The position numbers were made by a program, and so were the translations under genes. The notes under the pieces are model-generated. The model was not told the origin of the DNA. It searched no databases and saw nothing but the letters and a program-made list of their open reading frames with translations. DNA of 64,000 nt, from the NCBI RefSeq assembly GCF_029227915.1, contig NC_079883.1, positions 3,286,001 through 3,350,000 of the forward strand, given 5' to 3'. Positions within the stretch are counted from its first letter, which is position 1; every line of letters starts with the position of its first letter. Positions 16,903-54,675 of the stretch are shown here, one piece after another. Origin of the DNA: Hydractinia symbiolongicarpus. Lineage: Eukaryota; Cnidaria; Hydrozoa; Anthoathecata; Hydractiniidae.

Positions 16903-19900
16903 ATGAGCTCTTCTGAAGAAGACGATGTCAAAGAAAAACGAAATAAAAAAAGAGTAAGAAGGCAGATTTGTGATAATTCTAGTGATGAAGGTGATATAAT
17001 TGAAGGTAAAAGTAATGCAGAAACTAACCCTATTCAGGAAGACGACACTGTTAGAGGTAAGGTTGTAACAGATCAAGAGGAAGAAGATTCAAAAGAAGTT
17101 GTGATAAAAAATAAACGAAAAAAGGTTTCCATAGTAGACAGCTCAGACGATGAATTTAATGTTGGTTACAGCAATAACAGAATGGCTGATCCTGGAGAAG
17201 GAAAAAGTATTTCATGTGATACAGTTGAAGACTTAAATAATTTGTCCAGAAGTAAAAAATGCAGTCCTGAAAGTTCTAAAGGAAGGCGTTTACGCAGATC
17301 ATCTAGGATAAATGTTGGAAGTGAAACATCTTGTACTAAATTTACCAGTGAAGATGAAAATTTTACTAATGAAGGTACACCTAAACGTAAATCTTCACGT
17401 TTACATGAGAAGGACGTTGTAAAAAGCAACAAAAAAATTCCTGTTAAAAGTGATATTTTAGATAAAATCTCTCCCTGGAAGACAAATAGTCCATCTATCA
17501 ATTTAAGATCATTCAAAATGAAAAAAACAACAAATAATTTCATGAAAGAGTAAGTATATACATATTATATATATTATGTATGTTTTTCAGCCTTCAAAAT
17601 TAGCTTATATGGCCTTATTATAGATACCTTTTGGGACATAAAGTGCTTGCAGCCTCTTTGACTAAAGATAAAACTTAACGTGCCAATTCTTCCAATTTTG
17701 GCAGGTTTTTCTACGAAGTTTTACTGGCCGCCCGATTTACAAACTGTAACTGAAACTACCGGTTCCTTGTTGTACTATATGACATTCCTTATCTCTAGTG
17801 TGCCTAAGTGAAGACTTATGAGTTAGAAAAAACTTTCATTTCATAATTTGTACTGCCAGGGCATGGCACTAATATTTTTACTCAAATAGCTTCAGGAAAA
17901 GTATTTAGCAAAGAGAAAGAATCTCTATTTTGCCTTTGTAGATTTAGAGAAAGCTTTTGATAGAGTGCCACGCAAATTTATTTGGTGGGCTATGAGAAAA
18001 TTAGGTGTGGATGAGTGGCTAGTTACGATGGTGCAGTCTATGTACAACAATGCTAGAAGTCATGTCAGGATTAACGATTCACTTAGTTATGAATTTAGTG
18101 TAAATGTTGGTGTACATCAGGGTTCTGTACTTAGTCCTATGTTGTTTGTTCTAGTCTTAGAAGCACTGTCGATGGAGTTCAGAACAGGTTGTCCATGGGA
18201 GTTATTGTATGCAGATGATTTGGTTCTCATAGCAGAGTTGATGGAAGAATTAGTTGAAAAGTTTGAGAAGTGGAAGAAAGGACTAGAAGAGAAAGGGCTA
18301 AGGGTGAACACAGAAAAGTCTAAAGTCATGATTAGTAGCATTGCAGCCAAGTGTGACCTTGTAGTTGGAAGGTGGCCTTGTGGAGTTTGCAAGAAAGGGG
18401 TTGGTAGTAACTCAATTTTTTGTCAGACTTGCAAGCATTGGGTACATAAGAAGTGCAGTAGTATTAGTGGAAGGTTAAGAGCTGACATTCAGTTTGTATG
18501 TAAGCGTTGCAAAGGTGAGATTATAGAGAATGAAGTATTTCCAGCTTCAATGAAGTACAACTATGGCTCGTTAGAGATAATTGATAATTTCTGTTACTTA
18601 GGTGATATGTTGGGCAGTGAAGGGGGTGTTGGAAGAAGTGTTACTTGCAGGATAGGTTCTGCTTGGAAAAAGTTCAGAGAGGTACTTCCTTTGTTGACTA
18701 GCATAGTCTTGTCAATTGAGTTAAAAGGTAGGTTGTATGAGGCCTGTGTAAGAAGTGTTATGTTGTACGGTGGTGAGACATGGCAGTGAAGTAGGAAGAT
18801 CTTGACGGTTTAGAAAGGAATGATATGAGAATGGTTAGGTGGATGTGTAATGCCAGTCAGAGAGACAGAAAGAGTTCAGATGAGCTAAGAAGCAGGCTAA
18901 GTATCCGTAGAATTAAAGATGTTATCCAGGTAAGAAGATTGAATTGGTTGGGGCACTTGGAAAGAATGGAGGGGGATAATTGGGTAAGAAAGTGTAGAGA
19001 CTTGATAGTTCCTGGGGCAAATCCCAGAGGCAGACTGAGAGAACTTGGCAGGAGGTTATAAGGACAGACGTGATACAGAGGAAGTTGAGTTTAGATCTAA
19101 CACAGTCTAGATCAGATTGGAAGAGGGTCATTAATATACCCCATCCAACCCATGCTAGCATGGAAAACGGACGTTAAGCCGAGAATGATGATGATGATGA
19201 TGATGATTTATTCTTTGATTACTTTGCCGAAGTTTGCATTGGTTTGTTGCATTGCTTCAAAAGGGGTGATAATCATTGCAACACTTTCAAATAGAGAAAA
19301 TCACAACCCTCGCCAAGAACTAGCTTTGAGATTGTGTCGTGCATTTTATAAACCTGACAGTCACTTTTCATATAATCTTTTTCATATAATCTTGTATTAA
19401 AATACAAGAACAACAAGTCATAGTAAAAGAGAAAAAATTTCATCGATTTAAAAAATATATAAAATTAAACCAAATTTCATTAAGAATATTTGTTGTGCGC
19501 ATTACCATTACATATTAAGTTTTACTTCTAAATGTTGAAGTATAGAGCAGGTGAGGTATAAGTGAAATGTTAGAATGCATATCTCTTGATTTGTGTAGTG
19601 TTCAGTGCGGAAGGTCTTTAATTCAAACAACGACCGTTTCATGCCAAATACTATGAAAGTGTGAATCGATCCTTTCTGCTTAGCGTTCAGCATGAGAATA
19701 GGATTTATATTTAGGCAGTTGTCTAGTTAAGCGATTGTTGTGCTTGCATGCCTTCCGTATCTCAAATGGAAGCTTTAAATGCTCTAGGACCCCCTTGACA
19801 GGACCCTCATTAATAGCAGTTCTATTAGGAATTGTAGTGGCTTTCCAATAATGATAATAATACAACATACTACGACCATTTGTTTTTTTCTGTATCCGAA

Positions 19901-22900
19901 CCTACCTATCTAAATTAAATAAAACTCACAAGTAGTCTGGTTCACTGTAATCACAAATCATAAATAAAAATCCAAATGAACCATTAAGGAAATATTTTTT
20001 TTAATATATGTTGGATAGGTATAAATATTTCTAGTAGTGTATTATATATACAAATGAAAATGTTTTAAAAGTGTGCTGGACTGATCGAGGATGATAGGAA
20101 TGAGATGAAAATGTGTTGGCATGGATGAAATAGGAAAAAATGTGAAAAATTTTAATACTAAAAATATTAAAGCACAAAGTAACCATTTTAAAATTCGATG
20201 TAACCATCTGCTTATTGGACCAAATTTTTGTATGATAAGTTAATAAGTGGTGACTTGATGCTATGACTATCTCATTTATCTCTTTTTTTATCTCTCCTAA
20301 TCTTAATGCACCATAATGCATAAAAATTTTTGCTTATTATCCTGAAAATTGTTGAAAATTTCACTTCTGTACTTCTAGCCAACATTTTAGTCTTTGACTA
20401 AAAGCACAATTGGTGTTATCTATAAAATAATACCTTTATACACCTGTCGTTCTGTCTGTCTGTTTGTCACGCAAAATGGTAGCCTAGCTGCGCAAGTAGT
20501 GAGATGCATGCAATGCAGTATAAGAAGTACGGGCAATTGACTAGTAAGCAATATTGACTTAAGCTAATTTTGTGTGTAATTTTTACAAAAAGGATGTTTT
20601 TCATCTCATTTGTTTAACGGCAAAGTTATCATTTTAACATCACGTAATCACATAAATAAAGCATATTGGCCGCAATACATTAAAAGAAAATTAGTTAAGC
20701 CATTGCATTGCGCTTTTAACGTGAAGGTAAAATAACTCTGAAAATGTTGAAAATAACTGTGTGGGTAACTGGGGACCACCTGGGCCCAAAATAAGTCCGA
20801 TTTCCTGAAACTGGGTAAATCCACCTGATTTCAAAAAGGGGGTTGATGATGTCATTAAAAGAAATCTTTTAACCCTAATATCTCTTCAATCGTTCTTTGA
20901 AAGTATAATCGTACACATTTATGTGTTAAACTAGACAATAGAGGCAATGCATAAACACATTTCTAAAAAGAAATTTTTATGTATTGACAGGTCATTGCCT
21001 ACTTCATTAAAATTTAAATGATGCATCATTTCCATTTTCTTCTGCCCAAGTGGATTTTTCTCTAGGCTTATCTATTATAATAGTTGGCTAAGTATGTAAC
21101 ACCCAGTGTTTATTTATGTGTATGTATATATTTATTTTCTTTGAAAGGGCATGTCTCAAATGTTAATTGATAAATTAAATGTCACCACGTGTTTATCACA
21201 AAATAAGGCGATGTTCAGTCTTGAAAGTTTACAAAAATCAGCAATGTTCACACTTTATTTGAAAGCTGTTTGCTTTTGATTTTCTTGCCCACCTCTGACA
21301 AAAAAGCAAAACCCTTATGGCCCCATCAGTGAGTTTATTTTATGTGGCGCCGTAGATTAGTGGTTATAGCTTTCGTACTCTGTGCGGGAGACCGGGGTTC
21401 GATTCCTCTTGACGGCGATTCAACATGGGCGAGTGAATGTTACCATAGCCCCGGGTTAACCCAAGCCATGTGAGGGAAATTGGGGAGATGGCACACTGTG
21501 TGGGCCGTTGGATGTTGCCGAGAGTTGTCTAGTAGAGCGTGGGCCCTACTAATTGGGTCTGCGTAGCTCAAAATGAGCATTAAATACTCTAGGACTCTCC
21601 ATCTAAGCCATAGCCCCTCCTGGAAATAATAGAGAGGGTATATCCCTCGATATTTGTGAGGCTAGCCATGTAAAATATACACATCTGTCTATCTATCTAG
21701 AACACACAGTTACAACACAGAAACTGTATATGACCTTGAGGAAGATTGGAATTCCGAGTATGACTTCATTGATGACAGCGATGTGGAGGAAGAACATTAT
21801 GTGAAAAGAAAATCGAAGAAGTTGAAAAATTCAAAGAAAAAAGGAAATGTTAAAAGACAAAAGGAGGTTTTCAGTGATAGTTCAGGAGATGATGACCCTA
21901 GTCATGGATATTCACATAAAACGAAAAGAAACAGAATTATTAGTTCTGATGAAGAAAGCCAAGATCATGAAATATCTCATAATAATGACAACGAAGAATT
22001 TGCAATAAGGAGACCATCTTTAAGTCGTGTCAAAGTAAAAAAAAACCTAGTTGCTTTGCAAAAACTCAAGCAATTAAGAGCTGTTGGGAATCTTCCTATT
22101 GAACAACGTGAGACTGAAAAACAAATGTATAGTTCGCCTAACCAGTTAACCTTTAGTTACCTTCAAGAAAATACATCAGATGAAAATTTTATTGTTGATG
22201 ATGAATCGGAAGAAAATGATAGTGATAAAGAGCATTGGTCTAATTCTTTAAGTGACCTTCTGAAATCTTTTAGAAATGCAGGACCTCCTGCAACTAATAT
22301 AAGAAGGAGAAAAAGATCAAAGAAATCAAGACTAAAAAATGCATTAAGTGATGATGACGATACTACTGAAACAAACTTTAGCCTTTCAAAGGAAGAAAAA
22401 CGCTTATATGAATGTGTTACTATAAATGATATAGAATCTGTTTCTGGTTTATTAATCAAACACAAGCACTATAAAAATCTACGGGACGAAAACGATTACA
22501 CAGCTTTACACATTGCTGCCATGAAAGGATTTCTACCAATGGTAAATCTATTAATAAAACATGATGCGGATTGTAACATCACAGACTCTCTTGGATTTAC
22601 TCCACTTGCATATGCAGCACTTCATAAATTTCCCCAGTGTTTAAAGACTTTGCTTGAAAACACAAATATGGAAATATTTATGAGGAGTTTAAAAAAAGCC
22701 CTGCAAGGCTGTAACTTATTACATTTAGTTGTATCGGTCATGCACAATGATGAGATTACTTCTGAGATGAGAAGTGAGTTAGAAAACAGTATAAATTTGT
22801 GCATAACAGCAATAAAAGAGTTCAACAAGAAAATGTTTTTAAGCTTGCTCTTACAAACAGATAAAGGACATCACACACCATTGTTAATGGCTTTGGTTAA

Positions 22901-25900
22901 TGATTTACCCCAGGTTTGTTTTTTCCTAAATCACACGATATTATTTGTAAGCAACCCAATTTCTAAGACTCTGTCTCAAGTAAAAAGCTTTTTAGCATCT
23001 GTTAGATTTAACAGCCATAATATTCTGAAAAACGTATTATTGTTTTAGCAGCACTATACCTTGTTAGAAACATAAATGTCAGAATCAAAGCAAACCAAAA
23101 ATTTATTGGGTGCCAAGCAACCAGATAAGCAACTCAAGGAGTACAAAGAGTTCTTGTTGTTCTTACAAGGTTTCACCCCAAAAATGAATTGTTATATAAA
23201 AGAAAAATGTAAGAAAGCAAGCATATTTTATCTTTCCATAGGCTGTAAAATTATTTCTTGAAGTTTTATCTAACCAACAAGATCTGTCTGTTATTGAGTT
23301 CCCATTGGAAGAAGGCGTAACTTTTCTGCATTTTGCTGTACAACACTCCACAAGATGTTTAGCGCAAGTTTTACCACATTTTAAGCATTTTATAAACAAA
23401 GTTGATTGTAATGGTAAGTTTTTCTTTTCTGTGAAGATAAATTGTTTGGAAAATGCAGCATTTGCTGCCATGAATATTTTGTGACCCAAACGAATACATT
23501 GTGGATAGATATGACTGCAGGTACTATACTAACCAATTTTATGGAATATAATATCTGTGAACTGTAGAGACATATTTTTCTGCTGTTTAGAATAGCTTAT
23601 AGCTACCTAAAATACAGTGGCCAAATTTTGCTGTTGCTAAAAATATTTCAAATTTTCGATTCAAAAAAATTGAAGCGTGAAAAAGACCTCTCGGAATTGT
23701 AAGCTGTTTGAGACAAAACCAAATAAAACTGCATTCTTATGGTAATTTATAAAAAAAAATTATCTTATGAATCCGAAGCACAAGAGACTATATAAGAAAG
23801 TGTGAACTACTAGGCTTTACCTTCAAATTTAGATAATTAAAAACTTCATTACATGTGGGTTTTATATTTTTTTTAAAAATTAAAACTTATCAAACTTATC
23901 AAAATCAAAAATATAATTGTATAAAGCTTAAGTTTAACTAAAATATTTATTACACAGCCACAAGTTTAAACAAGCCTATTGAAGAAGCTTCAAAGAAAAT
24001 TATAATATAAATCAAAGATAAGCAAAGCTTCTAGTATTGTAAAATTTTGATATTTTGGGAGATTGCATTCTGGTTAAGATTACTTAATGTCATGAAAAAA
24101 GGACTGATATCTCCATAAAGCTGTAAAAATAGAAAGGTGTAAAGCTAGCAAAATATCAAAATGGAATCACATGCGTCTTTAACCCTTTCGGTACGGAGCA
24201 AGAATTCCCCTATTTCCGAGAGTAAAAACCTATTATTTTAAAACTACATCTAATGCAATCATATTGAAATTTTCAACCTTTTTTTCTGAAAAAACTTAGC
24301 GGAAAATGGAAAAAAAGAAAATTTCATGCACTCCATCTGGACCAAAAATCCATAACGGCGGATAATTTTTTTTTTTAAAAAGTGTAACTTTTCGTTTTGT
24401 TCAAGCTTAAAAGATATATTACTTCAAATAAAGTTGTAAATATGCCTGAATCCATGTACCTAATTTTAAGAGTGACCTACTGCAAAAAATGGTTAAAAAG
24501 TTTTAAGGTAAACACAAGATATGACGGTTTTAGTGAACTTGAATTTGAATAAAAATCTGCGGTAACAAGCAAAACAAAAGAAAAAGTCTCGGAAAAAGTT
24601 TGCTGAATTTGATTCCTCATACTTAAAAAACCAAATAAATGTTACTCGTTAGTAAGAAAAAAAAATCATAAAAAATTAGTATATATTGTTCATAGGACAA
24701 AAATTACTAATCTTCAGCGCTGTAATGAAGCTTATATATGGTATATTCTAAAACAGTTCTCAGGGTGAAGTTCTGGTTTTGAAGGGCAATAACTGTCCCG
24801 AAAAAGTAGTTCTCAATGGCAACCTAGCCTGGTTTTCTGCGACTGGGACCCTAAAGTTCTCTTGTTCTTCAGGAGTGCCAGTTGATAGAGATTTTATCAC
24901 TTCTACAACAAATTCTAAAAACGACATTGTTGATCCGCTTTTTTTGGCATGAATTTTGTGAGCATTTAGAATGGTCTGCATAATCAACTGCAATGCAATT
25001 TTACAGTACCACTTATAAGACTTTCTGAGTGTTTGAAGATTGTGCAATTGCTGATCCACTCTGTCGACACCTCACATATGTTGGTTGTATGATTTAATGG
25101 CAGTTGGCTTTTTACAGTCTCAGTATCTCGTTTCACTGGTTCCATTGTAGGTTGATGGCATGTGGTAAGCATAAAGACAACCTTTTGCTTTCCACCAGCT
25201 TTATCTTTTGAAGACCGATATTTGACAGCAACCATTGTGTCTTCCTTTTGACAATAGAATGATGCACTTCCTTTTTATAGGTTTACAGGAACAATGTCTT
25301 TAGAATAGTTGTACCTGTTTGATCTACTGGTACCTACCAGATGCGTTTTGTTCTCAAGAAAATATGAGGCAAGTGACAGGCTTGTGTAGAAGTTGTCAGT
25401 GTATAAAATATATTCTTTTCCAAGGAACTGGTGCATCAGGACGGCTGGAATTCTCTCAGTGGTAGGCATGTCTCCGTTAGGGTCATCATCTTTGAACATT
25501 CCCTTCCCGCAATATATAAGGAAATCAAGCGTAACTCCATCAGAGGTGCACAGTTCGTAGATCTTTATACCAAAGCGGGCCCGCTTTGTTTTTATATACT
25601 GCCGGAAATGCAGGCAACCTTTGAAGAGGACAAGTGATTCGTCAACAGACAGACACTGACCAGGGGTTTAAACACTTTTGTATCTCATTTGAAGTAAGTC
25701 AATCAATGGTCTTATGTTATGCAACCTGTCTCTATTTTCATCATCTTTGTCGTACTCTGGATCTTCATTGTTGTTAAAGTGTAAAAAACGCTGGATGAAG
25801 TAGAAGCGATCTCGTTTCATCGTTTTGGCGAAAATAGATGTATTCGAGTATTCATCGTTTACCCAATATATTTTTACAGAAGGTTTATGTACCACCTCAA

Positions 25901-28900
25901 AAAGCAAAACAATAGCAAGAAATTTTCTTATTTCCGCTACAGTAACAGGGTCCCATGCTACGTCACAGGTAGCGAAGTATTGAGCAGCAAAGCGATTTGT
26001 CTCGGTGACTAACAAATCCCAGAACTCATTTGTGAGGTAGAGATTCAAAAAATCTAAGGGTTCATTTCCATTCATTTCTAACATTTAGTCCCTCAGCTTC
26101 TGAAAATGGAAAATCTTTTAGATTTACAAATTCTTCTTCGGCAACTTCTTTCCAGTGTGCTATTGGGTGGCGTTGATTCTGATGATTAGCTGCTAAGTTA
26201 CGTGGTATTTAACCGGCCACTGCGGTGCCTCTCAGTCTGCCTCTCCTTCTGGGTCCTATTCGTCCTCCACGAATTCTGATTGCTCTAGCAGCAGCAACAT
26301 GTCCACCTCGTGTCCTTACTCTTCCAGCATGCCCGAGTCCTCTTCTTGCAGCAGCAGCTCCGTGAAGTCTTGCTGGGCTCTTCCAACATGGGGCCTCTTT
26401 GAAAGGTTAATCAGCAGTTCCTCTTCACTGTTAGGGCTACCAGCTTCAGTATCAGTATCATTGTTTTCAGAATGTCTTTCTTTTTCACCATCAGCAGAAG
26501 TTTCCTCTTGTTCAAGAGGAACACCTGGTGGAGCTGTGGTTATAGTCTGATTTTCTTTTGACTGCAGTACATCTTCGGATTCATGAACATGGCTTTCAGG
26601 GATATTGAAAAGTGATTATTTTTGAAAGAACAATGCTATGAACAAACGGGTTTTTTCCCTGATTCGGAAATTTATTCTAGTTTCGGAACATATTTTGCTT
26701 TGTAGTCTGGGAAAAGCCGTATCAATTCCATTGGCTGATTTTTTCATTGGCAGGCGCACTGCCAACGTGGAAATTTTAATGATTTCTATACGCAGTCACA
26801 CTGCCAATGCGTATACCGAAAGGATTAAAGCCTTGAAATACCCACAAAATTTTGAGCTTGAACCAGGACAGCCACTCATCACTAAAAATTAAAATGCTAT
26901 TGTGTATTTAAAAGATAATAAATTTTGATATAATTATATTTATGTAAACATTATGATAGGGTTTTCACCACTGATGTATGCCTGTGAACTTGGCAAAGAT
27001 GACAGTGTAGCGCTTCTCCTTCTCAATGGTGCATCAATTCATACACAGGTCAGAATTATACTTACTCTAATCTGCACTTAAAGGGAAGAAACACATTTAC
27101 CTAAAGATACCTTAGCAGTAAAAGCATTTGCATTATAACTTCGATTTTCGCAAACGTTTTTTCCATAGAACACACCAAAATTGGCCAACCATAGAAGTTT
27201 TTTCCTGCCAATTACTCATATTTTTTAAAAACGCAAAAGTTCACTTCTGCAGAAAAACAAAAAAGGAACAACTAAAACATTTTTCCTTATCTCTCTACTT
27301 TATACAAACCAATACACTGAATATTGTCACTATGGAACTGCAATGTTGTCATTGAAAAAATATTACCGATTAGTCACTGTTAGAAGATGTTCCAACAGCG
27401 CTATGCATTTCTGACAACAAAATTGTGAAAACACAGTCTTTCTTCCTTCAATCTATTTTAAATCTTGATTAAGTATAAACAAGACGTATGATATACATAA
27501 ACTAGCTCACAAAACACAGACATTGACATTCATAATCAATTTGAGCAAGCAAAGATTGCATTAAATGTTTACAACTCGTGCTACTGTGCTTCCATGACTT
27601 TGAATTACACTGATACTTTAGGACTGCAAGTCCACAGGTATGCTATCTTGTCTAAATAGTTTCATCACCATGTGCATAATTCGCTAAATGGTACCGCTCC
27701 CACTTGGAAGGTTGATGGTCCTCAGATCGAAACCGATGACGTTACATTTTCTCCCATATTGTTATATGGACTTTTCTATACATATTTTTACTCTTCCCTA
27801 ATTACAATTAGACAAACCATTTCTTTGCATATTGAAAAAAGTTAAGTGTAGTTCAGTTGGGTTTGATCACAGAACTAGACTACAAGATTCCCTTGACTAG
27901 CGCGTGCTACTCTTAAACCTAACTTTGATCCCTCTTATTGCTCAAGCTGTAAAACATCCAACCAATACACATGCGACTTTTAGTGCAAAAACGTTGTAAA
28001 TTTGTTGATATGATTTAAAAATAAACACTTTTAAATACTGCTACTGTGGTTGGGTAGTTGGAAGTGACTATAATTTTTTTTTTTCACCTTTTCTTATTTT
28101 TTTGCTTTATATTTCAGGAAACAGATTGTTAAGCCTAGGAATGAAAAATATTTGATTTTCCAACAAAATCCTAACAAAAATCAAATTGACCCAGGTGAAG
28201 AAACCTAGGTCAACAAGGGAGGCGCTCAAAATCAGTGAAAAATCCCATTGTAGTACAGACGCCTCATCTCCCTATTAACATCTAGTCTCTACGAGCTAGA
28301 TAATAAGAAATTTGGTAAATATTAAAGATACGTGATCCACAAAATGTTATTCCTGCAAAAAAATTAATGCAAAAGCTATGTTTACAAATTTATCTGCAAT
28401 TTTATTACTATGAACATTTTTTGCCTTAATGTTGGCATATTGTTGTTTGCTTTTGCCACTTAAAATTTTTTCTAATCTTTGCTAACATTCATAAATTTCT
28501 AACATAGCCATGTTATGTGGTTCAAAAGTTTGCAAAAGTTTGCATCTTCAATTTTTCCTCTTATCATAGGACAAAGACTGGACAACACCCCTTCACCTAG
28601 CTGCTGCAAGTGGAAATTTAAAATCGATTGAATTGTTGATTTCTCATGGTCATAGTGTTAATTGTCTTGACAAGTTTGGTTGGCCGCCTTTACTGTACGC
28701 TAACTTTAAAGCAACCCAATCTTCTGTTATCGCACTGTTTAGAGCTGATCCCAAACAGATTTTTTGCTTAAGTAATCTGCTGCACAATAATGACGAGGGA
28801 ATGAGGAGAAAAAATGCTAAGGTTTGTTTCATTAATTTGCTATAATATCTATCATATATATATCATAAATTTAAAGCAACTACAATGTATCAAAATTACA

Positions 28901-31614
28901 ACCGCTATGTCTTTGATCACATTTAAGTATCTGTGCCTACAGCTAATAGGTATAGGCCTATTAACTTGTCATTAAAATTATTTTTCAGGTAATTCAAGAA
29001 ACCCTACTGTCAATCTCGCATATTGACGCATATTACACCATTTTTAATGATTTTATTGCATCAAATATGTCACTTCTTGATGAAAACGATAGTGGTTTGT
29101 TTACAAAAACATGGAGGATGATTTTAAACTTTGAAAACAAAGTGCGCTGGTTAAGAACCAAGTATGCTCTGCTTAACCAAAACATTACCCTACATTTCTT
29201 CTACTTTTCAATCATTATACAGGGGTAAATTGTATTTTAACATTGTTCCTGTTTTACTCTTTAGATATTGTCTGTCTTATATGTCAAAGGTTTATAATAT
29301 CACAGTTGATCGCAAAAACGTGCTACAGTCAGCGTTAGATCATTACACCTATTATGGATTTTATCTTGCCAACATAAAAGTAAAGTTCAAAGGGGAAGCA
29401 GGTATGATATATATATATATGTTTTTAGTAAGGTTAGAAATTTAAAAGTTGAGAGACAGTAAGTTGGCTTTTTATGTATTTCTTAGTTTTGTCCTATGTC
29501 AATCAAATCAGCATATAGTTTTAAAAAAAGAGGAATATCAATTCTCAACTTGGTTTTAAAAAATATAATCAGGGTTGCCACCAAATTGGCGAAATCAGAG
29601 AAATCAGGAACTCTTAAATTTGATCAGGGAAAGAAGGATTACGGATAATCAGGAAATTTTTGTATTTTTAATTTTCATGTTTTTTGTAATATATATATTT
29701 TTTTCTAAATCCTTAATCCTGGTGAAATCAGAGAAATCAGGAACTCTTAAATTTGATCAGGGAAAGAAGGATTATGGATAATCAGGAAATTTTTGTATTT
29801 TTAATTTTCATGTTTTTTGTAATATATATATTTTTTTCTAAATCCTTAAGTTCATTATTCATCAAACTCTTAGCTGATTAACTGAACTTCATCATGACCT
29901 ATTTTCTCAATTTCCTGGACCTTCACGAGCTGTTAATTGTTTCATAGTAGAGACATTGCAGAAACTGTGCACACATCTGTTTAAGTAGAGCTTTTGGAGT
30001 TTTTTGGCTGCCAAGAATTGGTCAACCTTACCCCTAAACATTTAAGCTTATTTTCTAATAAACTTTACTTTTAAAGCAGCGTTAACTCACAAGCCTCCTT
30101 CCCCTTTTCCACTTCGCATGTTTATGCAGTGTGGCCACTCATACTGAAATAACTGGAAATTGTGGAAAATCAAAATGTTTAGTTACTCACAAATGATTCC
30201 AAACATTTGGCTCAAGTCGTAGAAAGACAGAAAGTTTTTCACCAATTTTATTAACTGATTCAAATCATGGTAATTAAAAACTGAAAAATATACTTGAAAA
30301 AGGTACTGAAATCTATGGAATTGAAATTGAAATTTTAAGTCCTATTAATTATTTATTTATTTATTCGCAATTTCACATTAAAAAAATTGATGACATCACA
30401 AGTTTTGAAATGACATAATCAATTTTGTCATAAATTAAACTATTTCCAGCAGATCAGTTAATTTCATTAATTATTCTTAGAAAAAGTATTTGACAACATA
30501 TAAGACACATATATTAATTAAAATTTTGTTCCTGTTACCACCAAAAATTGATCCTATATTAAAACCAGCTTTAAGTTGAAGCATTTATTGGGGAAATTTT
30601 AGGAGTGAGGCTTTTAACAGAGAAAGTTAAGTTGAATTTGTGAAGAGAAATTAGGTGTTACGCATATGAAGGTATATGTTTGCATTTTCAATAAGGATTA
30701 TGTTGTGGTGTCTAATTCAGTGTGTTTAACAACTTATCACTTTCTATTTTTGTAACAATGTAAATTTGAAACCATATTCAATTTCAAAATTTTTTAAAAA
30801 AACGTCTTTTATTATTACATGTATGATGTTAACATAATATTACATAAAATTATCATGGAAAGACTTATACTAAAAGTTCTGTTAGTATACAATTTCTTTG
30901 TTTTATTGCTTTTCGAAGTGCAGTCACATATGTAATTTTCTCATTTTCCATCTTAAAATTATTTTGTTTGTGTTTTAGGAAGTTGTTTGGGACCAAAAAG
31001 AGAATTTATCACTTGTTTAGTTGAAAGTTTAATTGATACAGAGAAAAAATTACTGACTCAATTGGATAACCAACATTACAGGTAAGAGGTTGTCTTTTGG
31101 CAAGTCTTATTTTTGTTGGAAGGTTTAATGCTAATTCTTTATTAAACTATTTTTTTTATATTTGGAAATTTTAAGATAATTTAACTCGCCTATAACTTAT
31201 TTATTTTTGTCTTTAATTATTTGTTGCATTATTTCATTTCTTCAAAGAATGGAATATTTTTTCTTTATTGTGACATGCAAGTGCATCAAGTAAATGTTTT
31301 ACACAAAAACAACACACAACTGATGGCCTTGTGGTAGAGTGTTCCCTTCCAGTGCAAAAGGTCTTGGGTTCAAACCCCAACCGAGTCATGCCAGAGACTA
31401 TAAAATTGTGAATCGATCTTTTCTGCTTAACGTTTAGCATGAGAATAAGATTGATATCTCGCTTATCTAGCTGAGCAGCTGTTGATCTTGCATGCCTTCC
31501 GTAGCTCAAATGGGAACTTTAAATGCACTTGGACTTCCTTCGTAGGACCCTTGTTGATAGCTGTACTAATAGGATCTAAAGAGGCTATCCTGTGTAAATA
31601 ATAATAATAATATT

Positions 31615-31666
<52 letters not shown>

Positions 31667-34600
31667 GTAATTATCATAAATAGTTTGAAACTAACAAACT
31701 AGTGTTTTTGTGAAAATCAAACTTCATGTAATAAACTTGGGTAAGAAATAAGAAATTTTATTTTACCAATTTTATGTTTAGTTTAGTAGCAAACAGTTAC
31801 TTCATGAACCACTTGAGGACAGCCTTAAAAAATTTGGAAATAAAAGAAGAAGAGAAAGAGAATAAAAATCTATGTGGTGGTTTAAATACAGATACTAAAA
31901 ATGCATACAGTAAAAATTGTGCCATCGAAGAGAGCACACCCTCACATTTATCTTTTATTGAAAAAATGGAAAGTAAACTTAACATATTGGACAGTGACAT
32001 GCTGAAAGCAACATCAAGTTGTATGTCAGATGAATCATCTAATTTGTCAAAATATATGCCATCTGTCAGTGGTGATATCACCACTGAAAAATCTACTGTG
32101 GATGTAACTGATTGTAACATAATCCCATTTTCGGATGGTGACATCACAACTGCAGAATCTACTGTGTATAAGAACGATGGTGACATAATTCCATTTCCTG
32201 ATGGTGAAATCACCACTGCAGAATCTAATGTGGATAAGAATGATGGTAACATTGTCCCAATTCCTGATGGTGATAATTCACCATATGCAGAAGCAATGTC
32301 ATGCTCTAAAGACGATACGGCATGTTACGCAGACAATATGTTAAATATAAGTGATGTTGATATGCTGGCTGCAGCTGATGGCTATACATCAAAACCATTA
32401 AAGATTTCTGTTATAGAAATAAAAGACGAGGATGATCTGCATGCACCAGCTAATATCTGTACCTCAAAAGAATTAATTACAACAGGAGACAATGTATCTC
32501 CAAACACCTCTGTTGTAGAAGCACAAGGAAATACTGATATATTTGCCACAGTTCCTGATTTTGCTCCAGAAGTGTTGGTTAGCACAGAGGATAATGGCAT
32601 ACTACCCGTTGTGGCTGTTGAAGAAACTATTTTAGTTACTAGTGAAAATATTCCAGTCGGCAATGCCAATACTGAAACGACTGCTACACTACACAATATC
32701 ATAGAAATGCCTAGCATTGTGGAAAACCATAATGAAGACGTTTTATCAAATATAACAACCGAAGTGAAAAATGAAGAAAAACCCCCAGTCAAGGTACAAT
32801 ATCTCAATATTAATAATACCCTTCTGTTCACAAGAAAAACGTCTATTGAATTCGTTGTGTTATCCTTATTTCCCTGAAATGCGAAAAAATAATAATATAC
32901 ATTGAATAAGATTCTTGTTGTCTGATTATTGAAAAAAACGTGTAACTGTAGAATTCAAAATCGAGACTTCACAAATCAAGAACATTTAGAACGAAGAAAA
33001 TACTCTTATCCTTATAATGCCCATGTTTAGCTCAAGGTAACCTCCACCCTGAAAAAGGTTGTTTTCTTCCTTTCACTCGAAAAAAAGCATTTTCAGGTTG
33101 TGGACAGAATCTTTTGGTAGGGTAAAAATGTCACATGAAAATAGTAAACATAAAAGTAGCTGTCGAAACGTAGCCTAGAATAAATTCGCTTGTTCATGAC
33201 ATGATAATATTTACATTATCCAATGTCCCTAGTACTGTTGTTTTAAAACATTTTCCTGCTCTTAAAAATTAACCCAACTTTTGAAGAAGATACTGAGGAT
33301 GATCTCTTGATAGCTAATGTGTTTCTTACAATTTGTATAACAAAATACTTTTTAGCTGTACACAGATTACCAAACTGATTTAAAGAATAAACTTGTATCG
33401 ATTCACTTCTTTGGTCATTTTGTTGCACAAGTTATATTGAATCCAGATATTAACATCAGGATTCAACTTTCGAAAGCAGTTATAAAACAGGTTAGTGTTT
33501 TGTGTTGCATTTATTTTAAGATGGCTGGTTAAGTAAAACTATATAACTCCTGTGCCTGTGCAACTTAAACCTATTTTTAAGTGTTTTAAATATTTAAGTA
33601 AGTTTTTAGGTTAAGTATTTAAATTTTTTGTTTTTGCTATTTCTTTATTCAGTTTTCATGGTTCCACCACTCTATGAGACTTAGGCATCCCTTTTCTGTG
33701 GCACCAGCAACGATATTTTGATTTACTCCCACTCTATATATTTGCGGAAGAATTATTTACGAATCCAAACGTCTGAACTTTTTTTTTTAAAAAAAAGGTC
33801 TACCTTACATCCTTTGCATGTTAAAGTATAAAAAAATTCAAAATTTAGCTGGTATATCCTGCATATCCTAAAAGAATAATTAATTCCAGCCACTACTCGC
33901 ACCTATCATCTTTGAGACGGAAAGTAGGGTTAAGACGAAAAGTCAGGTTAAGACTGAAAGTCAGGTTAAGACGGAAGTTCGGTTAGGACGGAAAGTCAGG
34001 TTTTATTATATGGTCTGGTCGTTCGCCTGTCGAACACATTCCGGTCGTCATATATTCAAAAGTAGCGATTCGGCTACCATTTTAAACAGACATTGGGTAT
34101 TATTAGTATAATAAACTAGTTGTCAACCCGTGGAATAATCCACGGTGTCGCCCGTCCTGTAATTATCGTATTTCGTGTTTCCGTAACAGACTATTACAAC
34201 AAGCTACTATTATAGAGATTTTCGGTACATTTGTTGTGTTTAAAGATACATGTTTATTTTAGCTTGTTGGTATTCCTTTAAATCATCCTGAAGAGCTTTC
34301 AGAAATTGATCCTCAACTATACTCAAGTATTAAGAACAATGAAATGAACGAATTGGAATTACCTTTCTCTGTCACAACTCTCAATCCGTGGAATGACCAA
34401 CTTGAAGAAATACCTTTGACTGATAAAGAAGATGACATCATCTTAGATGAAAACAAGGTAACTTATTTTATTTAGGGGTATATTTTAGTTGCGTGTATCT
34501 TCTACTATTTCTGCTGGGGGGAGAGGACTGATATTTTTAAATTTCTTTCTTGCTCGGGGGAGCAAAACAAATAGTTGTTCTCTGGTTAAGGGGAAAAATT

Positions 34601-37600
34601 AATAAAATTATTCTGATAAAATATGTACTTTTCTGCAAACAATTTTTTAAAATAACGTGTATATGTAAACCTATTTTGAACATATTTATAAATTGTTTGC
34701 ATTGGTGAAAATTGAAACTTAAGGAACTTAATATCGTGTACATGTGTGTATTTAAATTTTTGCCTTATTTTATATAGAATTAAATGTTTCTGTTATGTGC
34801 ATTGTGAAAGATCTCTGTAATGTAAATTATGGAAGATCTTTGTAATGCACATTGTAGAAGATCTCTGTAATGCACATTGTGGAAGATCTCTGTAATGCAC
34901 ATTGTGGAAGATCTCTGTAATGCACATTGTGAAAGATCTCTGTAATGCACATTGTGGAAGATCTCTGTAATGCACATTGTGGAAGATCTCTGTTATGCAC
35001 ATTGTGGAAAATCTCTGTGATTTTTGGAAGACGAAGGTATACATTAGCGTACTAACGTTTTATAAAATTACAGTGTTTATTTTTTTTGTTTAGGAAGAAT
35101 ATCTGAAACTTTTGTCCTTATTTAAATGCGAAACATCCATTGCTGCTGAGCTTGAAGAATTTAAAAAAGGTTTTTATCAGGTAAGTTTTTAACTTCAGTT
35201 CCCACGACCTTGCTTTCATGAAAAAGGGAGGGTGGAACGATCAGTTAAAAGGCAATTGTACTCTTCCAGCGCATACCGTCATAGTTTAAATGTTCCCGGT
35301 AAACAAAAAATCTATGTTTTTTTCCGTCATTGCATTGAATAGATATTGTACAATTACGTTATTCCAGGAAATTAACGTGCAACAAGACGTATGATATACG
35401 TAAACAACCTCGCAAATAGAGTTTACAAAAAGTCTATCAAATTGTGATTTCTGTTACGAAGTTAGACACGACATATTTTGCTATTCAGATAGGCAATAAT
35501 ATTTGTTACGCACTACGCAGTTATTTCTCAAAATTGATTTGTGAGATTTTCTTGAACGGAACCATACCAAAAAAACAAAACAAAAAAAAAAAAAAAAGAA
35601 AGTCACTCAGTGAGAAAAGCAAATTAAAAAAAAATAACATACCAACGGCATTTAGGCGACAAGAAATCAAAATTTTGATGTCACCATCATGTTCAGCATA
35701 CTTTTTTTGTTAACTGTGCCAAATTTTGTCGAAAACAAACACCAATTTTGGCCTGAAACGTCATTTAGATGACTTCCAAATACTTGAGAGTTTAGGTACG
35801 AAGTTTAAATCTGTGACGTTGCAATTGACCATTTGGGACAAAGTTAGTTAAGAGTATCCTGGCAGGCGAAAAAAAAAAATAAAAAAATAAAAATAGGAAC
35901 CAAGATGAGATTCGAACACACGACTACTCCCGTGTCGGTGCTCAGAGAGGCATTAATTTCCATTCTTGTAGGACACATTTGCGTTCGAATATTAATTTAT
36001 AAAAAACGATATTTGCCATTAATTTTTTAGCAAATCAAGTTTTTTAAAAATTATTTGGGAATCCTTTTAATTTAAAAACTTTTTTAGGCTTTTCCTAGTT
36101 TAGGCGCCTTTTTCAATTTCTAATAATTATTTGTCTTGAAAATATGAAGTTTCTCGCTTTGATGTTCATGTTTACATTTTTTGTATAATAATACCAAAAG
36201 GGTGCAACGCACAAAGTGGATAATGTTTAAAAATCTTCTTATAACCTTCATAAAACCTCCATATATATTTGATTTATATATCTAAGTAGATTTCTCCACA
36301 TGTGAAATTATAAACATGTAGTTTTTTTTATTCTTGCATTACAGTGTATTCGTCGTGACGTCATCAGCATCTTTAACGCAGACGAATTTGCTCTCCTATT
36401 GAATGGTGTAAACAAAATCGATGTAGCTGACTGGAAGGCTAATACTCAGGTATGGTGTTTTGTTTTTTTTGTGCTTGTTGGTTTATTTGTTTTTGGTTTT
36501 GTTTGTTTGTTTCGTATTTCCGCTCTACACATGGCTTCCTTTCAAATAGCACATCTACATTTTAATACTCGTATAAGTCCGTCCGTCACACAAAAATATA
36601 CTGAAAGTATCGAGACGTACACCATGCGGTATAAAAAGAACGGGCGAGTTTTGTAAAAGTCGTTAAACGCCTTTCTTTAGTTAGATAATGATGTGCGCCA
36701 ACAAGATTATTGCAAAAGGAGTTTATGAAGAAAGTTTACTATTGTAATGATAATAAAGTTATGTTATATAAAGTTATAAAAAATCACATTATCAACGATA
36801 GCTTGGGTTTTAGAGGACTGCTGGTTAAATAAATATCACTTAGTGCATTAAGATTTTTGTAGCCAGAGCAACAATTTCTGCCATACGATGCATGGTGAAT
36901 AGAAAACTCGAAGATCTTAGCCGCTCGTATAAAAGCGGACCCCAGCACACTGGCTAGCTCAAGGGCGACATGTATTTGACATTATCTGTTGAATTTCAAT
37001 TAGCTATTAGGCGGAAAGCTTTTGGTGGAAACAACCATTTTTTTGCTGTTGTTGCGAAAATCTTGAAACAGCGTTGGAATGCAATATAGTTTGTTTTGTT
37101 TTCGGGTTTTATTGGTAATAAATGTTAAACTTATTGTTTTAGTATGCAACTTGGACATTAAGCGATCCAGTTATTACATGGTTTTGGAAAATTGTTGAAA
37201 ATCTGAAAGATGAAGAAAAATCGCTTTTGTTGAAGTTTACCACGGGTTCACCTTGTGTGCCCATGGGTGGTTTCAAACAAATGCGGGTACGTAAGTTTCG
37301 TTTTAATGAACCGTTTAATAATTTATATCGTCAATAAATAAATTTTCGCGAATCTACAGATTAAAAAATTTTCTTTGGCGAGATAAACTTTCGCGATTGG
37401 TGATTTTTTATGTTCTTACAAAAGAAGTGGCCTATGTTTCTTATGATAGAAAGGTGTTTTTTAACGATGTAATTTTCTTTCTAATAGTATTTAAAAACTT
37501 CTATTTGCAAATTAGGTTCATCGTCAAAATCACAAACAGATCAAACACATTTTTAGGCTCGTCTTCTTCCGGCTCCCACGCATCGTCGTCGCCATCGTCT

Positions 37601-38605
37601 TTTTCGCCAATAACTCGGTTATAAGCCATACATACATTTGAAACTTCATCGCTTTTGTTTATTTCAAGTTTATTCCAATCTCGTTCCCAGCGCCAGTTGT
37701 ATCGGGAGGGCAAGCCGAGGGAGGGCGAGTCAAGAAATAACTTTTAACCAGCATTTTTTTTAAATTTTAGTGGATAAACTTTCGCGAATCGACAATTTAG
37801 AAAGTTTGTACTGAATAAACTTGCGAATGGCCATTTTTGAAAGTTTCACGAAAAAGGCCAAAAAAAGAAATTCGCGAAAGTTTCTCTCGTGAATATAGTT
37901 TAATATTGAGCTACGAATTTCAAAAGATATTTCCTTTCTTTAACGAAGTTATTTTTTAGGTTTTTTAGTCTTTTCAAAACAGGAGATATTTGATACGGGT
38001 TTCCTCATCTTTTCGAAAATTAAGAAAAATTTCAAAAAAAAATTCAGGATTTTGAAAGCAAAACAGAAGAAATTTTATATTTTTTTATTGATAGAAAATC
38101 CATGTTACTGTGTATATTCAACTAATTGACACCCTATTTTTAATATTCTCAGGGATTAGGAGGTCCAACTCTGTTCACCATCGGTAGTACCAGTGAAAAA
38201 GATAAGGTTAGTGCTTTCAGGTTTTTAACAACAATCTTCTGCTGATAGGTAAGAGGGGTCCCCAGTTGTTATTTAAAGTATTCGTCTTGTGATCGAGTTC
38301 CAATGGCGCTCTCCCATGTATTTGTTTATTTAGTCAGCAAGCAAGTTAAAACAATTCTGTATAGAACTTAGTTGCAATTGGAAGGGGAGGAAAAACAAAC
38401 CATTAAGAGGGAATCCCCAAAAGCGGTAAACTTCCTGTTACGTACTATTTTTTACCATGTTCTTTTAATCTATAACTTTTAGTTACCACATGCATCAACG
38501 TGCTTCAACTTGCTATCTTTGCCAGTGTACTCAAGTGAAGAAATATTCAAAGAAAAACTATTGATTGCAATTCGTCATGGTTGCGAAGGATTCGCTTTCT
38601 CGTAA
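16903..38605 (+). CDS. ankyrin-repeat HECT E3 ubiquitin ligase with acidic inserts
   Basis: Sixteen coding exons: 16903-17549, 21701-22913, 23242-23413, 26960-27048, 28570-28821, 28989-29161, 29265-29401, 30979-31081, 31782-32793, 33356-33490, 34263-34457, 35094-35180, 36345-36449, 37143-37286, 38153-38206, 38483-38605. All phases match: 1546 residues plus stop. Residues 1-445 are disordered, rich in SSDDE-type acidic serine clusters and basic KKRK stretches (likely nuclear). Six or seven ankyrin repeats span about 450-775 ([24 protein letters not shown]). The HECT domain runs from about 855 ([20 protein letters not shown]) to the end, with the catalytic cysteine in [14 protein letters not shown], residue 1513. 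HECT ligases take ubiquitin as a thioester on this cysteine and pass it to substrates; ankyrins would select them. Odd: about 320 acidic residues (945-1266) interrupt the HECT N-lobe. An in-frame TGA at 16885 supports the start; AATAAA lies at 38722. It is not a clear orthologue of HACE1 or HECTD1. Confidence 0.88.
17840..19206 (+). mobile_element. 5'-truncated non-LTR retrotransposon (LINE) in ANK-HECT intron 1
   Basis: Encodes part of a reverse transcriptase: [15 protein letters not shown], then [11 protein letters not shown], then the catalytic [12 protein letters not shown] (YADD box at about 18208-18219), then the thumb region. Unusually, a PHD-like zinc finger follows (18375-18515: CGVC, CQTC, HKKC, CKRC spacing), before a C-terminal region with [15 protein letters not shown] and, in another frame, [13 protein letters not shown]. 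Stops at about 18787 and a frame change near 18800 break it. The 3' end is the string CATGCTAGCATGGAAAACGG followed by an ATG microsatellite tail. It is not functional: the 5' part and endonuclease are missing. Confidence 0.9.
19595..19863 (+). mobile_element. tRNA-derived SINE (family A), copy 2
   Basis: Shares the family A blocks and AAT-type tail with copy 1. After the tail it continues with TACAACATACTACGACC and about 30 more bases that also follow copy 1, so the two copies share a 3' extension. The tRNA-like head is degraded. Confidence 0.75.
20425..20545. repeat. dispersed repeat with TCTGTCTGT and CGCAAAATGGTA blocks
   Basis: Carries TCTGTCTGTCTGTTTGTCAC, CGCAAAATGGTAGCC, a GCATGCAATGCAGTATAA block and ACTAGT. 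Related copies lie at 36563-36655 and at the distal end of the array at 49829-50165. It is a subfamily of the CCCGTGG...CCACGGG repeats described at 42885-43265. Non-coding. Confidence 0.55.
21341..21699 (+). mobile_element. tRNA-derived SINE (family B), near full length
   Basis: The head has pol III-type boxes: TAGATTAGTGGTTATAG (A box) and GGTTCGATTCC (B box). The body shares long blocks with 6467-6690. The tail (CTGTCTATCTATCTAG) runs directly into the 3' splice site of ANK-HECT exon 2 at 21701, so the polypyrimidine tract of that acceptor seems to be SINE-derived. It is not called as a tRNA gene because the acceptor stem ends do not pair in register and the repeat body follows immediately. 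Confidence 0.8.
24183..26824 (-). mobile_element. piggyBac-family element, whole but decayed
   Basis: Bounded by TTAA at 24179-24182 and 26825-26828. Ends are CCCTTTCGGTACGG at left and the complement of TCCTTTCGGTATACG at right, a 12 to 14-bp imperfect terminal inverted repeat. It contains the minus-strand transposase relic at 24760-26084. It lies in intron 3 of the ANK-HECT gene, opposite to that gene. TTAA targets and these ends are typical of piggyBac. Confidence 0.88.
24760..26084 (-). pseudogene. piggyBac transposase relic (PGBD4-like)
   Basis: Recognisable from the N-terminal part ([44 protein letters not shown]) through [49 protein letters not shown] and a C-terminal [10 protein letters not shown]-like region. 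The Asp of SVDES and the Asp of YTDNF belong to the family's catalytic triad region. The frame is broken by an in-frame stop near 25667, another near 25273, and a frame change between 25059 and 25235, so no active enzyme is made. An RG-rich open stretch upstream (about 26220-26400, minus) may be its N-terminal tail. Confidence 0.88.
29588..29851. repeat. two-copy 133-bp tandem duplication
   Basis: Two nearly identical 133-bp units (starting 29588 and 29721) lie head to tail in ANK-HECT intron 7. They differ at only a few positions (GGCGAAATC against GGTGAAATC, TTACGG against TTATGG), indicating a recent duplication. Non-coding. Confidence 0.85.
31318..31668 (+). mobile_element. tRNA-derived SINE (family A), copy 3, with long AAT microsatellite
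   Basis: The best preserved head of family A: TGGCCTTGTGGTAGAGTG (A box-like) and GGTTCAAACCCC (B box). The body shares GAATCGATCTTTTCTGC, GCCTTCCGTAGCTCAAAT and AACTTTAAATGC with the other copies. It ends in an AAT/ATT repeat array of about 70 bp (31597-31668) only about 110 bp before exon 9 of the ANK-HECT gene. Confidence 0.85.
32071..32268 (+). repeat. coding 66-bp tandem repeat, three copies (ANK-HECT exon 9)
   Basis: Three 66-bp units start at 32071, 32137 and 32203 and encode 22-residue repeats of the type [14 protein letters not shown] followed by DIIPFPD. They lie inside the acidic insert of the HECT domain. The frame is kept in all copies and substitutions are scattered, so the array is older than a few generations but still alignable by eye. 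Confidence 0.9.
33915..34003. repeat. 18-bp tandem repeat, about five copies
   Basis: Imperfect copies of GACGGAAAGTCAGGTTAA in ANK-HECT intron 10, with length variation in some units. Non-coding. Confidence 0.7.
34108..34220. repeat. dispersed repeat with CCGTGG/CCACGG hairpin
   Basis: A diverged copy of the repeat family forming the arrays at 40800-41090 and 42885-43265: ACTAGTTGTCAACCCGTGG, AATCCACGG, CGCCCGTCCTG and GTGTTTCCGTAACAG. It ends about 40 bp before the acceptor of ANK-HECT exon 11. Confidence 0.6.
34794..35030. repeat. 25-bp tandem repeat, about nine copies
   Basis: Unit GCACATTGTGGAAGATCTCT plus GTAAT, repeated with small changes across ANK-HECT intron 11. Both strands read open through it because 25 bp is not a multiple of three and the unit lacks stops in places; the resulting frames (minus, 34780-35044) are repeat translations, not genes. 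Confidence 0.9.
36563..36655. repeat. dispersed repeat, same subfamily as 20425-20545
   Basis: Contains GTCCGTCCGTCACACAAAA, TATCGAGACGTACACCATG and GTATAAAAAGAACGGGCGAG, which match the block order of the copies at 20425 and 50035. Lies in ANK-HECT intron 13. Confidence 0.5.
37330..37880. repeat. CGCGAA-rich repeat clusters flanking a CAACCTCG-family end
   Basis: Two clusters of TTCGCGAA motifs (about 37335-37400 and 37775-37880) lie in ANK-HECT intron 14, with a left-type MITE end CCAATCTCGTTCCCAGCG at 37676 between them. A minus-strand open frame at 37501-37713 with an acidic stretch falls here; it has no splice context or family match and is not called. Confidence 0.45.

Positions 38606-46386: not shown

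Positions 46387-54675
<8,289 letters not shown>

What the first reader, a model, noticed from the sequence alone, without database searches (positions are those of the whole stretch)
31782..32793. HECT catalytic domain split by a ~320-residue acidic insert in a single large exon
Exons around it are 87-195 bp and encode contiguous HECT N-lobe sequence, but exon 9 is 1012 bp. Only its first 20 or so residues ([19 protein letters not shown]) look HECT-like; the rest is acidic, Ser/Thr-rich, and contains three 22-residue tandem repeats. It falls between the N-lobe core and the segment beginning [13 protein letters not shown]. The insert keeps frame on both sides. It may be a tethered regulatory loop, a substrate- or E2-binding segment, or intron sequence that became exonic. 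HECT domains rarely tolerate insertions this size.
Basis: partly seen in the sequence, partly recalled or inferred. Interest (0 to 1): 0.75.

Follow-up and report, generated by a model that had tools for sequence, protein, structure and literature searches.

The report
Ubiquitin ligase with giant floppy insert
A colonial marine animal related to jellyfish carries a ubiquitin-attaching enzyme whose catalytic domain is interrupted by a real protein-coding stretch of over 300 residues that is predicted to be floppy; several relatives carry shorter inserts at the same spot, many with one shared small motif that may be a docking site.

Summary
Exon 9 (31782-32793) codes for residues 930-1266 of a 1546-aa protein identical to Hydractinia symbiolongicarpus LOC130656537. 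Skipping it shifts the frame. A close relative's insert is encoded on a 4,851-bp contig, best read as spliced mRNA.

The protein is an uncharacterised ligase with acidic N-terminus, ankyrin repeats and HECT domain, separate from HACE1 in a tree. The insert lengthens a turn between two N-lobe helices. HACE1-like proteins have 12 residues between the same anchors (9 of 9 rows); this family has 7-26 (sponge-, protist- and algal-type rows, Hydra) up to 348 (Hydractinia), with 56-319 in other cnidarian-type rows. AlphaFold leaves residues 961-1263 unstructured while most of the HECT core stays confident. So this is an extreme of a hypervariable loop, not a recognisable foreign domain.

An unnamed relative carries a GRF zinc finger at this spot. 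Best reading: a flexible docking tether inside the catalytic domain. The loop is shown at sequence level; its function is inferred.

The parts
16903..38605 (+). Whole gene: 16 coding exons, 1546-aa ANK-HECT protein (LOC130656537 of H. symbiolongicarpus)
   Evidence: identical to P0002; only copy among the 15 matches found in the 480.9-Mb assembly, the others outside the gene being 28-41% identical HECT pieces
16903..17549 (+). Exon 1: acidic/basic low-complexity N-terminus (residues 1-215)
21701..22913 (+). Exon 2: rest of the low-complexity N-terminus and first ankyrin repeats
23242..28821 (+). Exons 3-5 (23242-23413, 26960-27048, 28570-28821): ankyrin repeats
28989..31081 (+). Exons 6-8 (28989-29161, 29265-29401, 30979-31081): helical linker and start of the HECT N-lobe up to residue 928
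31782..32793 (+). Exon 9, 1012 bp: residues 930-1266 plus one base of codon 929; end of an N-lobe strand, a helix, then the unstructured insert
   Evidence: skipping it gives a stop after residue 937
31876..32784 (+). Part of the insert predicted without structure, residues 961-1263 (pLDDT below 50)
   Evidence: model residues 519-821, offset 442
31987..32013 (+). Motif copy 1, LDSDMLKAT (residues 998-1006)
   Evidence: looser pattern only; modelled as helix at pLDDT near 32-34; the relative P0003 has [10 protein letters not shown], which meets the strict pattern
32070..32292 (+). Tandem repeat, 66-bp unit, 3.3 copies; 22-aa in-frame units
   Evidence: P0003 lacks 22 residues here, one unit
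32350..32376 (+). Motif copy 2, SDVDMLAAA (residues 1119-1127)
   Evidence: strict pattern; P0003 has GDVDMLAAA here, which fails the strict pattern
32410..32436 (+). SUMO-interaction-like stretch VIEIKDEDD (residues 1139-1147)
   Evidence: seen by eye against a recalled consensus; windows 0.87 identical to P0003; no test of binding
33356..38605 (+). Exons 10-16 (33356-33490, 34263-34457, 35094-35180, 36345-36449, 37143-37286, 38153-38206, 38483-38605): rest of the HECT N-lobe and the C-lobe
   Evidence: PF00632, residues 1270-1545, E 7.3e-69
38501..38503 (+). Catalytic cysteine codon, C1513 in HASTCFN
   Evidence: Cys in the Rsp5 C777 column; number checked

Best explanation
The gene encodes a HECT-type ubiquitin ligase of an uncharacterised ankyrin-HECT family. 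In the N-lobe, the short turn between two helices has become a long, acidic loop predicted to be disordered. SHOWN at sequence level: it is a real coding exon; inserts sit at the same place in cnidarian homologues with widely varying length; it is nearly absent from Hydra; the HECT core is complete and predicted to fold around it; 7 of 9 long cnidarian-type loops share a short acidic-hydrophobic motif. INFERRED: the loop acts as a flexible docking tether inside the catalytic domain. The motif (two copies in Hydractinia) holds a partner or substrate close to the ubiquitin-loaded active site, the rest is spacer, and its length changes by repeat gain and loss.
For: Gene model and exact database match. 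P0003 (1519 aa) comes from a 4,851-bp contig with no room for the introns of a 21.7-kb gene, so a spliced transcript is the likely source; it carries the loop, lacking 22 residues (one repeat unit) and 7 residues. Segment lengths: 12 in 9 of 9 HACE1-like rows; 7-348 in the family (22 of 23 rows; Nematostella by hand anchors). AlphaFold: residues 961-1263 below pLDDT 50, HECT blocks of ten mostly 85-96, some 66-83. Hydra, without the insert, has the same strand-strand-helix-helix order with a 6-residue turn. Shared motif: observed score 148 against shuffles 122.9 +/- 5.8, 0 of 300; 0 of 200 with shuffling inside 10-residue blocks. The strict pattern hits 7 of the 9 cnidarian-type rows with loops over 50 residues, always inside the loop; in all 61 database proteins held it occurs only twice elsewhere, in P0021 and P0024. 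Shuffle mean at most 0.006 per loop.
Against: No partner, activity or expression was tested. The pattern was defined after seeing the loops; with P0012 left out and P0014 kept, 4 of 200 global shuffles reached the observed score, and without both, 1 of 200 local ones. P0002 and P0003 meet the strict pattern at different copies. P0014 and P0015 (185 and 184 residues) lack it, and Hydra, sponge-type and protist/algal-type members with short segments lack loop and motif, so neither is needed for family function in general. The loop changes faster than the rest: identity to P0003 0.82, against 0.95 and 0.96 for the two HECT parts and 0.91 for the N-terminus; motif windows (0.87-0.93) are above that mean but other loop windows reach 1.00. 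No Pfam family matches exon 9, ubiquitin-interacting motif included, up to E 10. Differences between repeat copies show no third-position excess (16, 8, 15).
Confidence: 0.6

Rival explanations
1. Neutral elongation: the turn tolerates anything disordered, and repeat slippage lengthened it in Hydractinia without a function.
For: Length varies from 26 (Hydra) to 348 (Hydractinia) within hydrozoans; the repeat differs by exactly one 22-aa unit between close relatives; lower identity; no third-position excess between repeat copies.
Against: A motif recurs in loops of separate lineages above shuffles in most controls and is nearly confined to these loops.
Confidence: 0.22
2. Autoregulatory lid: the acidic loop covers the E2 or ubiquitin-binding faces of the N-lobe and is released by phosphorylation or a binding partner.
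For: The insertion point follows the stretch that in Rsp5 holds exosite residues N513, Y516 and Y521. The loop is acidic (net -41 over 318 residues) and the [ST]D-x-[DE] motif resembles a CK2 site (recalled). HACE1 is autoinhibited by hiding its E2 site (passages).
Against: AlphaFold predicts no confident structure in the loop. The Y516 position is K in Hydractinia and Tyr in only 1 of the 11 family rows checked (the F618 position may be an offset Trp), and Hydra manages without the loop.
Confidence: 0.12
3. Exonised intron or transposon-derived coding sequence.
For: One large exon among small ones; transposon remnants lie in introns 1 and 3 of the gene.
Against: The insert DNA has no other match in the genome by a search that skips simple repeats; cnidarian-type relatives have shorter inserts at the same site, most with the motif.
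Confidence: 0.05
4. Gene-model artefact, the true transcript omitting most of exon 9.
For: No Hydractinia RNA was examined here.
Against: Exon skipping shifts the frame; after 31786 the first in-frame GT is at 32065; the relative's short contig keeps the loop; 380-codon open frame.
Confidence: 0.02

Closest known systems
HACE1 (ankyrin-MID-HECT ligase)
   Same: Ankyrin repeats plus C-terminal HECT; best PDB sequence match and Foldseek ranks 1-3 by E-value (TM only 0.21-0.30 for the whole model)
   Different: Falls outside the HACE1-like clade; long acidic N-terminus; HACE1-like rows have 12 residues where this has 348. The flexible insertion of HACE1 lies in its MID domain (passages).
Uncharacterised ANK-HECT proteins: Hydra LOC101238367, Oculina LOC144636654, Dysidea 'HACE1-like', eukprot CFRG4899T1 (Creolimax, name inferred from the prefix)
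   Same: Same architecture and same clade
   Different: Shorter segments (16-172)
HUWE1 with its disordered acidic substrate-recruiting loop
   Same: A disordered acidic loop of a HECT ligase that recruits substrates (unassembled histones; PMC13196369, passages)
   Different: The HUWE1 loop is, as I recall, outside the HECT domain; substrate recruitment is untested here
TRIP12/UFD4-type HECTs
   Same: Longer than the NEDD4 type at the same N-lobe site (60-110 between wider anchors in P0057, P0060, P0061, P0062, P0009, P0010; Rsp5 47; grouping of some rows recalled)
   Different: Tens of extra residues, not hundreds; no shared motif was sought

Membership tests
HECT-type E3 ligase | HECT domain above curated cut-off | tested here: met
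   PF00632 233.2 bits, cut-off 23.9
HECT-type E3 ligase | Catalytic Cys in the C-lobe | tested here: met
   C1513 lies in the Rsp5 C777 column
HECT-type E3 ligase | Ubiquitin thioester and ligase activity | not testable with these tools
   needs biochemistry
HACE1 | Ankyrin repeats followed by HECT | tested here: met
HACE1 | Groups with HACE1-like proteins in a HECT tree | tested here: not met
   7 HACE1-like and 21 ANK-HECT rows on opposite sides of a branch, 100/99; long-branch warnings for 5 of 37 rows (3 in the family), unusual composition in 3; no vertebrate HACE1 was in the tree
HACE1 | Short segment at this N-lobe site | tested here: not met
   12 in 9 of 9 HACE1-like rows, 348 here
ANK-HECT family (provisional name) | Acidic N-terminus, ankyrin repeats, HECT; one clade | tested here: met
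   acidic N-terminus judged by eye
UIM-bearing protein | Match to a Pfam model in the loop | tested here: not met
   none for exon 9 up to E 10; of four other loops two gave only unrelated weak matches (E 0.081 and 5); HMMER filters may hide weak short matches
NEDD4-type exosite | Aromatic residues at Rsp5 Y516 and F618 | tested here: inconclusive
   Y516 position K; F618 position P, with a neighbouring Trp that may be the equivalent

The most novel reading that the evidence does not exclude
An ancient HECT subfamily, spread from algal- and protist-type members to sponges and cnidarians and not seen in named bilaterians here, uses the inter-helix turn of its N-lobe as an insertion port. Lineages have loaded it with different docking modules: an acidic motif-bearing loop in cnidarians, and a GRF zinc finger (a nucleic-acid-binding fold, recalled) in another. 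Substrates would thus be held by the catalytic domain itself rather than by N-terminal domains, perhaps on chromatin, since another member has CW and Tudor domains.
Probability: 0.35. Interest if true: 0.65.

Novelty: new variant of a known kind. Interest (0 to 1): 0.45.

Why it matters
HECT ligases are thought to choose substrates mainly with domains outside the catalytic domain. A catalytic domain that tolerates, and may use, a disordered loop of 300 residues next (by alignment) to its ubiquitin-handling stretch would be a different way to recruit partners, and the natural series from 26 residues (Hydra) to 348 (Hydractinia) makes it testable by comparison. The family is not among the 16 animal subfamilies of the one survey whose classification section was read here (PMC2837046); a later eukaryote-wide survey could not be read.

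Tried and rejected
A known folded domain in the insert: no Pfam match for exon 9 up to E 10, no confident structure. A copy of the insert elsewhere in the genome: none found (which skips simple repeats). A second copy of the gene: none found; other hits are distant HECTs. An Rfam RNA in the window: none at gathering score. Loss or retention of the canonical exosite: unclear because of a one-residue alignment offset. Showing a HACE1 orthologue in this same genome: the search did not complete, so co-occurrence of both families in one species rests on Clytia alone, where P0046 is named and P0005 is only inferred from its TCONS name (one search shows them to be different proteins). Three-dimensional distances from the loop to the active site: coordinates are not given, so only order and secondary structure are used. 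Grau-Bove 2013 HECT survey: not held, so novelty of the family is not settled. Searches behind statements about print: (open-licence papers only).

Full report
WHAT IS THERE. The window lies at G000:C9:3286001-3350000 of a 480.9-Mb assembly. Joining 16 exons by their AG/GT borders gives one open frame of 1546 residues, 16903-38605. A protein search returned LOC130656537, uncharacterised protein of Hydractinia symbiolongicarpus (P0002), identical to the model over all 1546 residues. Pfam finds ankyrin repeats and a HECT domain (residues 1270-1545, E 7.3e-69); the first part of the HECT domain is not in that match, presumably because the insert separates it. The N-terminal 440 residues are low-complexity, rich in acidic and basic residues.

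EXON 9 IS CODING. It is 1012 bp, starts with the last base of a split codon and ends on a codon border. Leaving it out shifts the frame and gives a stop after residue 937. Apart from a GT at 31786, no in-frame GT occurs until 32065, so no simple alternative donor removes the insert while keeping the N-lobe; splice-site strength was not scored. The open frame is 380 codons, against a mean maximum of 138 and highest of 177 in 40 simulated 64-kb sequences. P0003, 87% identical by BLASTP, is a 1519-residue frame on a contig of only 4,851 bp, while the gene here spans 21.7 kb; the contig must be nearly intron-free, so an RNA source is inferred. P0003 carries the insert but lacks 22 residues (1042-1063, one repeat unit) and 7 residues (1170-1176).

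WHERE IT SITS. Between the strand ending ...SLVANSYF (F936) and F1285 of ...HFFGHF there are 348 residues. In the same alignment columns, 9 of 9 HACE1-like proteins and the Willaertia protein P0041 have 12. Of the 23 rows I assigned to the family, 22 could be measured there: Hydractinia 348, P0003 319, P0004 94, Clytia-type P0005 56, Hydra 26, P0012 (groups with the coral Oculina) 169, Oculina 172, P0014 185, P0015 184, sponge-type P0016 18, Dysidea 22, Creolimax-type P0047 16, P0007 104, P0018 79, P0019 78, and 7-20 in P0021, P0025, P0026, P0050, P0033, P0048, P0051. The Nematostella record P0017 has an apparently unrelated N-terminus and was measured by hand anchors, 319. In 24 of 25 other HECTs, and in Rsp5 (47), a wider span is 43-110; P0030 lacks the start column.

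STRUCTURE. AlphaFold2 on residues 443-1546 with 29 sequences gives mean pLDDT 72.4 and pTM 0.64; blocks of the ankyrin and HECT parts are mostly 85-97, some 61-83, and residues 961-1263 are below 50. The helix before the insert (933-959, last block 66) and the one after (1264-1294) are predicted; inside the insert two short helices (984-994, 999-1008, the latter over motif copy 1) appear at pLDDT of only about 32-41. The Hydra protein, which lacks the insert, shows the same order: two strands, a short helix (793-799), a six-residue turn and the next helix (806-832). So the insert sits in a turn between two helices. No relative with a mid-sized loop was folded. Foldseek ranks HACE1 structures 1-3 by E-value, with low whole-model TM (0.21-0.30), and many other HECTs. 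The segment before the insertion point corresponds to Rsp5 residues 503-535, which include N513, Y516 and Y521, where mutations abolish or reduce ubiquitin binding (PMC9282857, passages; alignment). Those residues are not kept here, and the fate of the F618 position is unclear.

FAMILY. A maximum-likelihood tree of 37 HECT sequences with family loops cut out (21 of the 23 family rows, leaving out P0019 and P0026; 7 of 9 HACE1-like rows, leaving out P0040 and P0043; P0041; 8 other HECTs) puts the family and the HACE1-like rows on opposite sides of a branch with 100/99 support; 5 of 37 rows have long branches and 3 an unusual composition. The cnidarian plus sponge-type part has 100/96. Members named by a source are Hydractinia, Hydra, Oculina, Nematostella, Dysidea, Perkinsus and Hyaloraphidium; Creolimax and Clytia are inferred from record prefixes. 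No named bilaterian fell into the group in three word-limited searches. P0018 also has CW zinc finger and Tudor domains, and P0007 has a GRF zinc finger (E 5.7e-12, residues 807-851) inside the N-lobe segment where Hydractinia has its insert. The animal survey whose section 6 I read (PMC2837046) lists 16 subfamilies and no cnidarian ankyrin-HECT of this kind; it dates HACE1 after the chordate/echinoderm split (passages), whereas HACE1-like proteins of Clytia, Dendronephthya, Amphimedon and Capsaspora appear here.

MOTIF. Seven loops (P0003 and P0015 left out as near-copies of P0002 and P0014) were searched for the best shared 11-residue stretch: score 148 against 122.9 +/- 5.8 in 300 shuffles, none as high. 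In a second run with 200 global and 200 ten-residue-block shuffles each: all seven loops 0 and 0; without P0014 0 and 0; without P0012 and P0014 0 and 1; without P0012 but with P0014 4 and 0. In the full set the stretch chosen in P0002 was [11 protein letters not shown]; the SDVDMLAAA site was chosen when P0012 was left out. The derived pattern [ST]D-x(0,1)-[EDA]-[LM]-[LM]-x-[AGST] occurs in the loops of P0002, P0003, P0004 (twice), P0005, P0012, P0013 and P0017, not in P0014, P0015, P0007, P0018 or the four short loops tried. Over whole proteins it occurs nowhere else in these seven; in the 61 database proteins held (P0001 being a piece of P0002) the only other matches are one in P0021 and one in P0024. 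P0002 matches at copy 2 and P0003 at copy 1; the other copy in each misses by one residue. The pattern was fitted after the fact. It resembles a short acidic amphipathic helix, and loosely a ubiquitin-interacting motif without its serine (recalled); Pfam does not support the latter.

MECHANISM. Shown: coding loop, position, length variation, predicted lack of structure, complete HECT core with C1513, shared motif. Inferred: the loop is a docking tether, comparable in principle to the disordered acidic loop with which HUWE1 recruits unassembled histones (PMC13196369, passages). Faster change, repeat-number change and near-absence in Hydra argue that much of the length is spacer, and leave neutral elongation as the main rival.

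NOVELTY. The gene and protein are already in databases without a function. What is new here is that the insert is an extreme case of a family-wide variable loop, the shared motif, and the GRF domain at the same place in a relative. I rate it a new variant of a known kind.

Noticed in passing
P0007 residues 807-851: A GRF zinc finger lies inside the HECT N-lobe of an unnamed ANK-HECT protein, at the site where Hydractinia has its insert.
   Followed up: partly
P0018 residues 175-221 and 294-336; P0019: ANK-HECT proteins with Tudor and CW zinc-finger domains (P0018 scanned; P0019 by the Pfam domains listed), suggesting a chromatin link.
   Followed up: no
window 24760-26084, - strand: Separate transposase frames inside intron 3 of the gene; two of the three scanned match DDE_Tnp_1_7 (piggyBac type as recalled).
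   Followed up: partly
window 17890-18786, + strand: Reverse-transcriptase frame followed by a PHD finger in the same open frame, in intron 1.
   Followed up: no
L018 1553-3475; L019: HECT frames of about 640 aa without introns occur at 9 places with near-equal scores in the Hydractinia genome, and a shorter HECT piece at 12 more, one of them with a stop. Beside one of the latter lie a SAM-like and an integrase-like frame (labels by eye), as if HECT were carried by mobile elements.
   Followed up: partly
P0037, P0039, P0042, P0046: HACE1-like proteins in a soft coral, a sponge, Capsaspora and Clytia, older than the published survey inferred.
   Followed up: partly
window 34800-35030: Tandem repeat of a unit of roughly 25-30 bp (atgcacattgtggaagatctctgta...) in intron 11, seen by eye.
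   Followed up: no
window 58870-59316, + strand: Memo-like protein piece (PF01875, E 1.8e-10).
   Followed up: no
window 48221-54591, - strand: Possible Sel1-repeat gene with an acidic N-terminal exon; only one sub-threshold Sel1 match.
   Followed up: no
PMC9926710 gene table: A HECT-domain gene, HyS0116.7, is listed in the table of Hydractinia sex-locus gene content (one passage); whether it is this gene was not checked.
   Followed up: no
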